Shown: positions 37,976-42,755 of the stretch, one piece after another
How the letters are laid out: the number at the start of each line of letters is the position of its first letter
Position numbering within the stretch: position 1 is the first letter of the stretch
Notes under the pieces: model-generated
Seen by the model: only the letters and a program-made list of their open reading frames with translations
Told to the model about the DNA's origin: nothing
The model's database searches: none
Position numbers and translations under genes: made by a program
Assembly (NCBI RefSeq): GCF_000724625.1
Contig: NZ_CP007139.1
Coordinates: forward strand, 2,666,001 to 2,730,000
Source of the DNA: Fimbriimonas ginsengisoli Gsoil 348
GTDB lineage: Bacteria > Armatimonadota > Fimbriimonadia > Fimbriimonadales > Fimbriimonadaceae
Direction: 5' to 3'
Length of the DNA: 64,000 nucleotides

Positions 37976-39463
37976 ATGGTTGGAAAAGGTCTGCGACTAT
38001 CTGTGGCCCTATCCTGCGGGATTTTGGCATTGGCAGCGACGGTTTCGGGGCAGGTGCAAAGACTCGGGATTCCTGTGGGCAATTTCGCGCTGCGCGCCTC
38101 TGGGGCTTCGGCCGTTCCGAGTTTTTGCCTCGATCTATCAAGGCATGCGCCCAGTCCGGAAACACCGTATAACTCCCTTCTAACTCCGTCGAGTGACGTC
38201 GACGTCGTCTATCGAAGCGGAACTCGAAAGTGGTCGGAGAGTTTGGGCACCGCTCTTGCCGAAAAGCACATTAGGATTGAGTCAAACAAAGTCACTGTTT
38301 CAGAGATCCGGTCCATGGCGGCTGATCCCAGAACTGGGTCGAAAGAGCGCATCGGACTCACCAGCCTCTTAAGGGCATATGAATCGAGATCCGCCTTTGA
38401 AAAGCTGATGTTCGAGCAAAGGCTTGCCCGCATCAATGACTTCAGTCATATCTCAGTAGTTAACCTCACCCCGTATCCTGCTGTCTTGGCGGTCCATGAA
38501 CCCGCGGCTTTTGGAACCCAACCGGAAACAACCTATCGAAGCGAAGTGAGCCGGCTTGGCATCGGCGTTTCCAATTTAGTCGTCTGGAAGAAGAATACGG
38601 AGGATCTCCAAGGCAGCCTCCGCGCCCTAGGCTTCTATAAGGGCGGCATCGACGGAAAGGATGGTCCTGCGACCCGCTCCGCAACAAAGAGATATCAAAA
38701 GAGCCGCAAACTCGAGCCTTCCGGAATGGCGGACGCCCAGACGCTGGAAAGTATTAAGTCGGATACTCTCAGTGCCGACGTTAGAGCGGTTCAAGCCCAT
38801 CTGGGCGCCAATCGAGAGCTACTTTTTCTAGAGCGAACCAGCGATCCTAGCCGGGAACGCTTTACCGTGATTTTACCAAGCGGGGAGCGAACCTTGCCTT
38901 CCGAGAGCGTATCTTCGGCCGTCCGGTCGGCAATCCATGCTCGGTCGGGCAAGGGAGTGGACGAGTTTGTGATTGTTGGCGAAGACCTGACCGACCGGCA
39001 GGCTGATGCCGTCGAGGCAGCGGTCGGAGGAGATGGCGGCTTACCACCGAACACGCGGGTAAGGGTTATGTCCGGGGGCATGGACGATCACGGACGTATC
39101 GATGTGAGCTTCTTCCGTGAGCAACATAAAGTGATCGCCGTAAGTGATCCCGTTGCCGTCATGCGAGGCAAGAGACGTGGATGGTTTCAGGCAAATGTCG
39201 AACTGCGCAATCGCTTCAAGCGCGCTAGGGAGATGAAGATCGTGACTCGCACGAGAGACCTAGCCAACGCCTACGTGACGTCATTCCGAAACCTCATAGC
39301 CTTAAACGACTATTCTGACATCCTAAGCTTGATTGCCGGCGTAAAGGCAAACGCGCAGCGGACCGTCAAGCACCGCGCCGGAGAGGCACGAATTGAATTT
39401 AAGGGCCGGAGATGGTTCGTGCGTCTTGAGCGGAAGGGGGCCGCGGCCCGAAATGTTTGTTGA
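37976..39463 (+). CDS. Exported peptidoglycan-binding-domain protein
   Basis: A 495-residue protein with an N-terminal signal peptide (residues 1-25, ATVSGQ). Residues about 205-250 are a PG_binding_1 domain (LQGSLRALGFYKGGIDGKDGPATRSATKRYQ). The remainder (25-200 and 260-495) is unassigned; the C-terminal 100 residues are basic (RGWFQANVELRNRFKRAREM). It is first in an operon whose second gene overlaps its 3' end by 11 bp and encodes a candidate caspase-like protein. No Shine-Dalgarno lies in the palindrome that abuts its start. Confidence 0.75.
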   Translation: MVGKGLRLSVALSCGILALAATVSGQVQRLGIPVGNFALRASGASAVPSFCLDLSRHAPSPETPYNSLLTPSSDVDVVYRSGTRKWSESLGTALAEKHIRIESNKVTVSEIRSMAADPRTGSKERIGLTSLLRAYESRSAFEKLMFEQRLARINDFSHISVVNLTPYPAVLAVHEPAAFGTQPETTYRSEVSRLGIGVSNLVVWKKNTEDLQGSLRALGFYKGGIDGKDGPATRSATKRYQKSRKLEPSGMADAQTLESIKSDTLSADVRAVQAHLGANRELLFLERTSDPSRERFTVILPSGERTLPSESVSSAVRSAIHARSGKGVDEFVIVGEDLTDRQADAVEAAVGGDGGLPPNTRVRVMSGGMDDHGRIDVSFFREQHKVIAVSDPVAVMRGKRRGWFQANVELRNRFKRAREMKIVTRTRDLANAYVTSFRNLIALNDYSDILSLIAGVKANAQRTVKHRAGEARIEFKGRRWFVRLERKGAAARNVC

Positions 39464-40028
39464 TGCGACGGAAAGTTGCCGGTGCTTGATGGCGCTTCCG
39501 GGGAGCACAGCAGAATTTCAGCGACAAAGTGAAGATCGTCAAAATCACGACTATGCCCCCAACCTCGTCAAATTCGAAGCTGTATTTCGTGTAGATCTAT
39601 GGGAACCATTCAAGGCGTTTTGTGAAGAAGTGCGCGGTCTGGGAGTCGACGTAGTTTGCGAGACAAGCCTGAGCACATTTGCTCAGGCGACTTCCGATCA
39701 AGCAAGACCCGTGGTGATCCTCTTTGCGCACTGGACGGGGAGTTTGCTAGAATTCTCCGACGGTCTCAAGACGATCGACCAGGTAATCGATGCTGTTCCC
39801 GGTGCTTTCGACGGCTTGATTGATTTATGCGTTTGTCACCCGGAGCCTTTGACTCGCCTTCTAATTCGACGTCGACCCAGGATGGTAGTCAAAGACCTCT
39901 CGGTGGAGGCAACTCCCAGCTACTGGTTTAAGTTTTACGCGCGCGTGTTCCACTATCTGAAGGAGCAACCGCAAAGTTTCGTAAGAGCTCATGAACGAGC
40001 CAGGGCGGAGCAGCTAAGCCGTGGATGA
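39453..40028 (+). CDS. Candidate caspase-like (CHAT-type) protein
   Basis: A 191-residue soluble protein. The segment VVILFAHWTGSLLEFSDGL (His93) followed about 30 residues later by FDGLIDLCVCHPEPL (Cys126/Cys128) mirrors the His-Cys dyad spacing of CHAT/caspase-like peptidases, in which an 'HxxG' strand precedes a 'DLxxLSAC' strand. A second half (SYWFKFYARVFHYLKEQP then VRAHERA) fits the helices that close that fold. This is by eye only. It overlaps the upstream exported PG-binding gene by 11 bp and the downstream two-TM gene by 8 bp, so the three are translationally coupled. ATG 39453 is the likely start. Confidence 0.45.
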   Translation: MFVDATESCRCLMALPGSTAEFQRQSEDRQNHDYAPNLVKFEAVFRVDLWEPFKAFCEEVRGLGVDVVCETSLSTFAQATSDQARPVVILFAHWTGSLLEFSDGLKTIDQVIDAVPGAFDGLIDLCVCHPEPLTRLLIRRRPRMVVKDLSVEATPSYWFKFYARVFHYLKEQPQSFVRAHERARAEQLSRG

Positions 40029-40533
40029 GAGTTTAGCTATGCTCATCCGATCTGTCCTCGATCGGAATCGTCTGTTTACGACGAAAGCCGGCCCACACCA
40101 TAAGGCGCCGGCCACCGAAGAGGAGTGGAAAGCAGATCTACGCCAAAGCCTTAGAAGGTTTCAGCTAATCAATGACATCGTATTTTTCATAGGCATAGGC
40201 AGTTACGTTGCGATCATCGCTTTGGCGATATCGCTAGTCATTGTGCATATTAAGAACCCTTTAGTGGTTGCCGCGATGGTAGGAGGATCGGTTCTTTCGA
40301 TCGCCACACTTGGACACTCGATCATAAAATTCAGTCTGCGAAAGTATGTGACGGACTTGATACTACGAAGAACGAACGACCTTCCTTCCGACGACGCGAT
40401 TCGATACCTCCTTGCAATGCTTCACGGTGAGGCAGAGCCGGTGTCCGCCGCCAACGCTTTCAAAGGTCAATTGGCAACTGAGACGGCTCCCCTCGCCAAA
40501 TCCGGGAGCGACGACTCAAAGCCCAGAGATTGA
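40021..40533 (+). CDS. Two-transmembrane-helix protein
   Basis: A 170-residue membrane protein with two adjacent helices at about 52-77 (IVFFIGIGSYVAIIALAIS) and 81-104 (LVVAAMVGGSVLSIATLGH), a cytoplasmic helical N-terminus and a charged C-terminal tail. The same two-TM layout is used by membrane effectors in bacterial conflict systems. GTG start overlapping the preceding stop; an ATG at 40039 is an alternative. Third gene of the operon. Confidence 0.65.
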   Translation: MDESLAMLIRSVLDRNRLFTTKAGPHHKAPATEEEWKADLRQSLRRFQLINDIVFFIGIGSYVAIIALAISLVIVHIKNPLVVAAMVGGSVLSIATLGHSIIKFSLRKYVTDLILRRTNDLPSDDAIRYLLAMLHGEAEPVSAANAFKGQLATETAPLAKSGSDDSKPRD

Positions 40534-40741
40534 GTCCCTTATTAGAGTGACAACAATGACGGCTCTCGACGTGAAGGGAGGTCTGGAAAACTTGCCGGAC
40601 CGCCGTCGTCAGGTGCCGCTCAAAGGGGAGCCGAAACGTAAGCACTGATCGATTCCTGACCGGACTGGACAGCTTCTTGAGAGCTACTTGAGGGGCGGCC
40701 TATGTTGCAACTCTCGTCGTTACTCGGCGTACACTGGCGGA

Positions 40742-41665
40742 ATGAGTGGAGAGTGGCCGGAGTTATCGTTTGAGGTGTGGGCCGACACCTACGCCACGCT
40801 CCACATGTGGACCCAGATTGTAGGAAAGGTCTGCCTGGCCCTGACGCCGAGGTCGAACCATTATTGGAACATCGCGTTCCAGGTTGGGGCATCCGGGCTC
40901 ATCACGCCGGTTATGCCGTACGGTGATCGGTCGTTCTCCGTGATCTTTAACTTTCTCGAAGATAACCTCGAGATCCATTGCTCGGACGGCGGGCTCCGCC
41001 GCTTAAAGCTCGAGCCGATGAGCGTGGCGACGTTTTACCGACGATTCAAAGTCGAGCTGCGATCTATGGGAATCGAGGTCAAGATCTGGCCGATGCCGGT
41101 CGAGATTCCGAATCCGATCCGTTTCACGGACGACGAGATGCACGCGTCTTACAACGACGACCAGGTGAGAGCTTGGTGGCGGGCCATGCTCGCGATGAAG
41201 CCGGTGATGGAGGAATTCCGGTGCGAGTTCGTCGGGAAATGTAGTCCGGTCCACTTTTTCTGGGGAAGCTTCGACCTTGCGGTGACCCGCTTCTCCGGTC
41301 ACCGAGCCCCGCCCAAACCGGAGATGGGCGACATGTACGCCGAGGCTTACTCCCACGAAGTGATCAGCCACGGCTTCTGGCCCGGCAGCGGTCCGGTACA
41401 CGAGGCGGCGTTCTACGCTTACGCGGTTCCCGAGCCTGCCGGTTTTGCGACCGCGTCGATCGAACCCTCGGCCGCTTATTACCACTCGGAGCTTCACGAG
41501 TACATCCTCCCGTACGAGGCAGTGCGAACCGCGTCATCGCCGGAGGCGACCCTCCTCGCGTTTCTGCGCACCACCTACAACGCGGGCGCTGATCTCGGCA
41601 ACTGGGATCGAAAGGAGCTGGAGAGATGGCGATGGGCTAGAACAAGCAAATCGGAAGCTTCATGA
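40742..41665 (+). CDS. DUF5996-family protein
   Basis: A 307-residue soluble protein matching the DUF5996 pattern: N-terminal WPELSFEVWADTYATLHMWTQIVGK, middle FWGSFDLAVTRFSGHRAPP and C-terminal AYYHSELHEYILPYE. Function is unknown for the family. Start at ATG 40742, where family members begin; TACACT ends 6 nt upstream and TTGCAA lies 19 bp before that, so it has its own leaderless promoter. Confidence 0.82.
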   Translation: MSGEWPELSFEVWADTYATLHMWTQIVGKVCLALTPRSNHYWNIAFQVGASGLITPVMPYGDRSFSVIFNFLEDNLEIHCSDGGLRRLKLEPMSVATFYRRFKVELRSMGIEVKIWPMPVEIPNPIRFTDDEMHASYNDDQVRAWWRAMLAMKPVMEEFRCEFVGKCSPVHFFWGSFDLAVTRFSGHRAPPKPEMGDMYAEAYSHEVISHGFWPGSGPVHEAAFYAYAVPEPAGFATASIEPSAAYYHSELHEYILPYEAVRTASSPEATLLAFLRTTYNAGADLGNWDRKELERWRWARTSKSEAS

Positions 41666-41684: not shown

Positions 41685-42755
41685 TCAAAGGACGCCGTAA
41701 GCTTTGGCCAGGCAGAGCATCGACAGAAGAAATACCAACGGAAAGGCGAACCGGCAAATCCGGTCGAGGCGCAGGGCTTTCGCGGTCCTTTCGGAGCTGT
41801 GGTAGTGGTAACTGACCACGTTTTCGATCATGAGGAGCGAGGAGTAGACCAGCGAGAGGATGACGATGCTGTCCAGGAACGTGTCGTAGACGTGAGCCGG
41901 TAGATACGTAGTGATGGTAAAGCCGTACGCCGCCGCCGTGAGCATGCCGGTCAGAGTGGCGCTGATGCGGTCCTTGACGTCGTGGGGAGGAACCCACAGG
42001 ACCCCGCACAGGAGAAGCATGACCACCGCCAAGGGGACGAAGAATTTGGAAACGAAGAAGCCGGGGACGCGCTGGATCGACACGTCCGCCTCGATCTCGC
42101 TGAAGCTCGTTCGGTCTCGGATCCCCTTTCGCTCGTGGACCTTCTCGTCCACGCCCAGCATGCTCCAACCAGACATCCGGAAAGTGGGCGATAGTCCGAC
42201 GATCGTCTTGTCTACGCTGAAAACCAGCTCGTCAGACCCATAGGCGAACGAGGCTAGATGTACCCGAAGACGTTGAGAGTCGAACGGGAATTTCGACATC
42301 TCGAAAACGGAATCCAGCGCTACGGAAATTTTTTCTCGGAAGAGCACGCTTCCGTCGGAGGAGATCATCAGCTCCTCGTTCTCGATCGTTGGCTTGCCGA
42401 TTTGGTTGACGAACTGCACGGTCGGCCACCAAATCTTTTCCAGCATCTCGTTGGCATCCTCCTCGAGGTAGACCTTGACCTTCGCGCCCACCTTGGCGGT
42501 ATCGAATGCGAGCCGAGGGTCCCGCCACTCCAAATCGAGGGCGCCATGGAGCGTGAACCGATTCGTGCCCTCGTCGATGCCGGAAATCTCCTCGACGTAA
42601 AGTCCCGCTCTCACCGGAACCGGCTCTCGCCCGTTGCTTGGAGGGGTCACGGCTACTTGGGCCAGTTGGAGTTTCGCCGGGTGGTTTTGAGCCAGCCCAA
42701 GGCTGGCCATGCCCAAAGTGAGCAACGCAACGAGGGAGACGAGCCGGTATGACAT
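41685..42755 (-). CDS. ELIC-like pentameric ligand-gated ion channel
   Basis: A 356-residue member of the Cys-loop receptor superfamily. Signal peptide 1-22; extracellular beta-sandwich about 45-230 with LEWRDPRL (loop A region), IWWPTVQF and the Cys-loop signature FPFDSQ at 156-161, without the flanking cysteines as in other prokaryotic members. Four helices follow: M1 231-255, M2 262-285, M3 292-315, M4 331-353. M2 (KDRISATLTGMLTAAAYGF) resembles Erwinia ELIC, and the Asp at the -1' position suggests cation selectivity. The ligand is unknown. It converges on DUF5996 with 19 bp between them. Confidence 0.9.
   Translation of the reverse strand: MSYRLVSLVALLTLGMASLGLAQNHPAKLQLAQVAVTPPSNGREPVPVRAGLYVEEISGIDEGTNRFTLHGALDLEWRDPRLAFDTAKVGAKVKVYLEEDANEMLEKIWWPTVQFVNQIGKPTIENEELMISSDGSVLFREKISVALDSVFEMSKFPFDSQRLRVHLASFAYGSDELVFSVDKTIVGLSPTFRMSGWSMLGVDEKVHERKGIRDRTSFSEIEADVSIQRVPGFFVSKFFVPLAVVMLLLCGVLWVPPHDVKDRISATLTGMLTAAAYGFTITTYLPAHVYDTFLDSIVILSLVYSSLLMIENVVSYHYHSSERTAKALRLDRICRFAFPLVFLLSMLCLAKAYGVL

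What the first reader, a model, noticed from the sequence alone, without database searches (positions are those of the whole stretch)
41685..42755. Prokaryotic pentameric ligand-gated ion channel of the ELIC type
Seen: signal peptide, FPFDSQ signature, four helices, and an M2 helix very similar to ELIC with Asp at the presumed -1' position. Known: such channels are rare and patchy in bacteria, and ELIC-type members respond to amines. It stands alone with no obvious ligand-synthesis gene, flanked by DUF5996 and a GH74 enzyme.
Basis: partly seen in the sequence, partly recalled or inferred. Interest (0 to 1): 0.6.

Follow-up and report, generated by a model that had tools for sequence, protein, structure and literature searches.

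The report
Lone bacterial pentameric ligand-gated ion channel
A soil bacterium, Fimbriimonas ginsengisoli, carries one intact gene for a bacterial relative of nerve-cell receptor channels; it is an ordinary family member, but the negatively charged residue that the bacterial channel ELIC uses to grip amine ligands is missing.

Summary
In detail: window 41685-42755 (-) encodes an intact 356-aa pentameric ligand-gated ion channel (pLGIC) subunit with signal peptide, beta-sandwich ligand-binding domain, FPFDSQ Pro-loop and four helices. All seven superfamily-defining residues are present, and a confident AlphaFold model (pLDDT 90) matches GLIC and GABA-A receptors at Z about 30. The genome is Fimbriimonas ginsengisoli Gsoil 348 (exact size match), where it is the only pLGIC. 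It is absent from 60 relatives, including 19 of the same genus, and found in 3 of 291 genomes of the phylum. 'ELIC type' holds for the pore (D-1', R0', T6', L9', A13', F16') but not for the whole protein. It groups (98/91 support) with cyanobacterial, Chloroflexota and Bacteroidota channels; placing it in ELIC's clade is rejected (AU p 0.005). Of the ELIC amine-site residues, F133 and F188 are kept, but E131 is Ala168 although all nine nearest relatives keep Glu; E77 is Gln, N103 Arg and Y38 Ala. In ELIC, alanine at E131, E77 or N103 abolishes amine responses, so an ELIC-like amine response is unlikely. Best reading: a periplasm-facing, probably cation-selective homopentamer gated by an unidentified small ligand. 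New member of a known kind; low interest.

The parts
41685..42755 (-). pLGIC subunit gene, 356 aa
42690..42755 (-). signal peptide, residues 1-22 (by eye)
   Evidence: sequence; low pLDDT
42069..42650 (-). extracellular/periplasmic beta-sandwich ligand-binding domain, residues 36-229
   Evidence: PF02931 at 36-230; strands in model
42273..42290 (-). FPFDSQ Pro-loop motif, residues 156-161
   Evidence: superfamily motif [F/Y]PxD in PMC4795631
42246..42254 (-). loop B, A168-S169-F170 (ELIC E131-P132-F133): acid lost, aromatic kept
42102..42125 (-). loop C, G211-F218 (GIRDRTSF); F218 = ELIC F188; clade acid at 211 is Gly here
41994..42065 (-). M1 helix, residues 231-254 with conserved P241
41904..41978 (-). 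M2 pore helix, residues 260-284 (D-1' R0' S2' T6' L9' A13' F16')
41796..41879 (-). M3 helix, residues 293-320
41700..41786 (-). M4 helix, residues 324-352; no long M3-M4 cytoplasmic domain

Best explanation
A bacterial pLGIC subunit. Shown by sequence and model: a subunit with a signal peptide, every superfamily-defining residue, a complete four-helix membrane domain, and an intact pore like that of cation-selective members. Inferred: five identical subunits assemble in the inner membrane with the ligand-binding domain in the periplasm; a small molecule or ion at the subunit interface moves the beta-sandwich, the Pro-loop and pre-M1 Arg (D159-R229) pass the motion to M2-M3, and the L9'/F16' hydrophobic gate opens to cations (D-1' ring). 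The agonist is not known. Because the ELIC carboxylates are gone while the aromatic wall is kept, a simple ELIC-type primary-amine response is unlikely; a different ligand, or one contacting the conserved D74 at the complementary face, is more likely.
For: PF02931; GLIC and ELIC sequence matches; AlphaFold model pLDDT 90.2, Foldseek TM (normalised by target length) 0.86-0.91 to the leading sTeLIC and GLIC chains, Z about 29.9 to GLIC and 29.8 to GABA-A chains. All seven superfamily residues F156 P157 D159 W197 R229 P241 P286 present. Pore D-1' R0' T6' L9' A13' F16'. Gene intact with host-like GC3 (0.775 against 75.7% genome-wide).
Against: No function measured. Pentamer not modelled (monomer only). 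The pocket reading rests on alignment at 23-37% identity; loop C is gapped, so the Y175 equivalent is uncertain. Cation selectivity is inferred from D-1' and the general pore pattern; K261 at -2' is unusual. Physiological role unknown.
Confidence: 0.8

Rival explanations
1. An ELIC-type amine-gated channel, with the amine held by other residues.
For: ELIC-like pore; F133 and F188 equivalents kept (F170, F218); an acid, D74, sits at the ELIC V40 pocket position and is D or E in six of the nine nearest relatives.
Against: E131 is A168, E77 is Q114, N103 is R140; alanine at each of these silences ELIC (PMC3119659). ELIC-clade membership rejected.
Confidence: 0.15
2. A proton- or ion-gated channel like GLIC (acid), sTeLIC (alkaline pH) or DeCLIC (calcium removal), not a small-molecule receptor.
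For: Whole-length sequence and fold are closest to GLIC and sTeLIC; D61 and E62 match GLIC D31 and D32.
Against: GLIC E35 and H11' equivalents are N65 and A274; proton and calcium gating cannot be read reliably from sequence.
Confidence: 0.25
3. A decaying gene: pocket acids lost because the channel is no longer used.
For: Two clade-conserved acids lost together (A168, G211); long terminal branch (1.06); only species among 20 sampled in the genus with the gene.
Against: ORF intact; codon composition host-like; Pro-loop, pore and coupling residues all intact.
Confidence: 0.1

Closest known systems
ELIC (Dickeya/Erwinia chrysanthemi)
   Same: Pore helix pattern R0', T6', L9', A13', F16'; acid at -1'; F133 and F188 of the pocket; long stretch before loop A.
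   Different: 23.5% identity; pocket E131, E77, N103 and Y38 replaced; two residues more in the M1-M2 linker; different clade.
GLIC (Gloeobacter violaceus)
   Same: Best whole-length sequence match (26% identity); same fold, Z about 30; acids at D31/D32 and pre-M1 Arg.
   Different: E35 and H11' absent; seven extra residues before loop A; GLIC lacks the pocket Phe pair.
sTeLIC
   Same: Top Foldseek match, TM 0.91 (target-normalised), 24% identity.
   Different: sTeLIC is gated by alkaline pH (PDB title); gating residues not compared here.
Uncharacterised pLGICs of Anaerolineae (L006), Litorilinea (L007), Xenococcaceae (L005, L008), Cyanothece (L009), Mesoflavibacter (L010)
   Same: Nearest kin, 33-36% identity, one supported clade (98/91), loop C RDR..FSE motif in four of the six, longer M1-M2 linker in all six.
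   Different: All keep Glu at the ELIC E131 position and Asp or Glu at 211; the target has Ala and Gly.

Membership tests
pLGIC / Pro-loop receptor superfamily | Seven most conserved residues: [F/Y]PxD (F, P, D), beta9 W, pre-M1 R, M1 P, M2-M3 P (PMC4795631 Table 1) | tested here: met
   F156 P157 D159 W197 R229 P241 P286
pLGIC / Pro-loop receptor superfamily | Ligand-binding beta-sandwich plus four transmembrane helices | tested here: met
   PF02931; model and PDB matches
pLGIC / Pro-loop receptor superfamily | Pentameric assembly and ligand-gated current | not testable with these tools
   needs protein
ELIC-type (amine-gated) channel | ELIC-like cation pore: acid at -1', L9', F16' | tested here: met
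   D262, L272, F279
ELIC-type (amine-gated) channel | Amine-coordinating carboxylates E77 and E131 | tested here: not met
   Q114 and A168
ELIC-type (amine-gated) channel | Aromatic pocket F19, Y38, F133, Y175, F188 | tested here: inconclusive
   Y53, F170 and F218 keep aromatics; Y38 is A72; Y175 region gapped (G211)
ELIC-type (amine-gated) channel | Same clade as ELIC | tested here: not met
   Tree; AU test p 0.005, group named after the tree was seen
GLIC-type (proton-gated) channel | Proton-sensing E35 and M2 H11' (their role is from my own knowledge) | tested here: not met
   N65 and A274

The most novel reading that the evidence does not exclude
In this lineage the orthosteric site has switched ligand class: from an acid-lined, cation-binding pocket kept by all sampled close relatives to a pocket without the two clade acids (Ala at 168, Gly at 211), so the channel answers a neutral or anionic ligand.
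Probability: 0.3. Interest if true: 0.4.

Novelty: new member of a known kind. Interest (0 to 1): 0.22.

Why it matters
It adds a cultured, soil-living Armatimonadota host to the patchy map of bacterial pLGICs, and a natural test of which pocket residues amine sensing needs: the relatives keep ELIC's Glu131, this one has Ala there. The native agonists and cell biology of bacterial pLGICs remain open; this case sharpens the question but does not answer it.

Tried and rejected
Phage, plasmid and viral collections: no match in phages, one distant Legionella record in plasmids, none in viral contigs with a narrow pattern scan. Operon or partner gene: none; convergent with DUF5996 (about 20 bp gap), divergent from GH74 (about 110 bp), no window neighbour shared with other loci, promoter and terminator scans at chance level. 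Conserved site in the genus: the GH74 orthologue is kept in G017, G016, G011 and G005, but neither DUF5996 nor the channel lies in the stretches examined beside it (the L105 stretch is short). Recent foreign DNA by composition: not supported for this gene (GC3 0.775). Inheritance within the phylum: grouping with the G196 channels rejected. Non-channel relative: rejected. No paper in the held library names both Fimbriimonas and a ligand-gated ion channel, which does not show that none exists.

Full report
WHAT IS THERE. Window 42755..41685 (minus strand) is one open frame of 356 aa starting at ATG. Pfam finds Neur_chan_LBD (E 2e-25, residues 36-230) and nothing else. Against PDB sequences the whole protein matches GLIC over residues 36-350 at about 1e-35, and the membrane part alone matches ELIC best at 3e-10. 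With 54 relatives as alignment, AlphaFold gives mean pLDDT 90.2, strands from 46 to 229 and helices 231-254, 260-284, 293-320 and 324-352. The model matches sTeLIC and GLIC (target-normalised TM about 0.9), and GLIC and GABA-A receptors at Z about 29-30. All seven residues listed as most conserved across the superfamily (PMC4795631) are present. It is a pLGIC.

HOST AND DISTRIBUTION. It has this one PF02931 gene. None of 60 relatives has one, 19 of them in the same genus; 3 of 291 genomes of the phylum do, and the genes of these three genomes (this one, two in G196, one in G075) lie in three separate places of the tree. Grouping ours with the G196 channels is rejected (p 4e-9). So the gene was gained separately, or the others were lost very often; transfer is the simpler reading but is not shown. 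Its composition is that of the host (GC3 0.775 against 75.7%), so any arrival was probably not recent. No phage match.

KIN. A scan of bacterial and archaeal genomes gave 185 relatives, of which the best 80 were kept. The nearest are 33-36% identical: Anaerolineae, Litorilinea, Xenococcaceae, Cyanothece and Mesoflavibacter. In a tree of 85 rows the target is sister to the Anaerolineae protein (96/91) in a seven-row clade (98/91) and a ten-row clade with Myxococcota (97/87). ELIC lies elsewhere, with Flavobacteriaceae and an Acidobacteriota protein; GLIC lies elsewhere again. Holding the target with ELIC's clade is rejected (p 0.005), with the caution that the group was named after seeing the tree and the sample is cut at 80.

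PORE. Lys at -2' is unlike GLIC's Glu there. The M1-M2 linker is two residues longer than in ELIC and GLIC, a trait shared by most of its clade. Cation selectivity is likely, not shown.

POCKET. In ELIC, E131 and F133 (loop B), Y174 and F187 (that paper's numbering; 175 and 188 here), Y38 and N103 are the conserved pocket residues; the amine lies near E77 and E131, and alanine at E77, E131, F133, I79, Y174, F187 or N103 gave no response to cysteamine (PMC3119659). The target has F170 for F133, F218 for F188, Y53 for F19 and V116 for I79, but A168 for E131, Q114 for E77, R140 for N103 and A72 for Y38. Loop B is ungapped next to FPFDSQ, so A168 is secure. All nine other rows of its ten-row clade have Glu there. 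At loop C position 211 the six nearest relatives have Asp or Glu and the target Gly, with less certain alignment. Hence the E131 carboxylate, kept by all nine, is gone in this lineage alone among those sampled. One acid, D74 at ELIC's V40 position, remains and could serve.

CONTEXT. The gene is a lone unit: convergent with DUF5996, divergent from a GH74-type xyloglucanase. No window gene beside it recurs beside other pLGICs. The xyloglucanase is kept in other genomes of the genus that lack the channel. A link to xyloglucan sensing is not supported.

HOW IT WORKS. Shown by sequence and model: signal peptide, complete fold, coupling residues, cation-type pore. Inferred: homopentamer, periplasmic ligand site at subunit interfaces, gating through the Pro-loop, pre-M1 and M2-M3 chain. 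Unknown: the agonist. An ELIC-like amine response is put at 0.15.

VERDICT. A new member of a known kind, of modest interest.

Noticed in passing
window 37976-40530: Three adjacent genes (a protein with a peptidoglycan-binding domain and two unnamed ones) have GC3 0.54-0.59 against about 0.75 for the genome and most neighbours: a possible acquired block just upstream of the DUF5996/channel pair.
   Followed up: partly
window 40688-41665: The DUF5996 gene beside the channel is itself rare: found in only 2 of 40 related genomes, neither in the same genus or family.
   Followed up: partly
L077 2349-9014 (Acetomicrobium hydrogeniformans MAG): Three divergent pLGIC genes within about 7 kb of one contig, perhaps a heteromeric or locally expanded set; L021 also has two side by side.
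   Followed up: no
L003 1345-2496 (phylum relative G075): A pLGIC whose Pro-loop reads FPFTVAE: the otherwise near-invariant Asp that salt-bridges the pre-M1 Arg is Thr, and the row has the longest branch of the tree.
   Followed up: no
L026, L078, L081, L019: pLGIC frames with roughly 200-500 residues open ahead of the ligand-binding domain, perhaps extra N-terminal domains as in DeCLIC (stop-to-stop frames, starts not checked).
   Followed up: no
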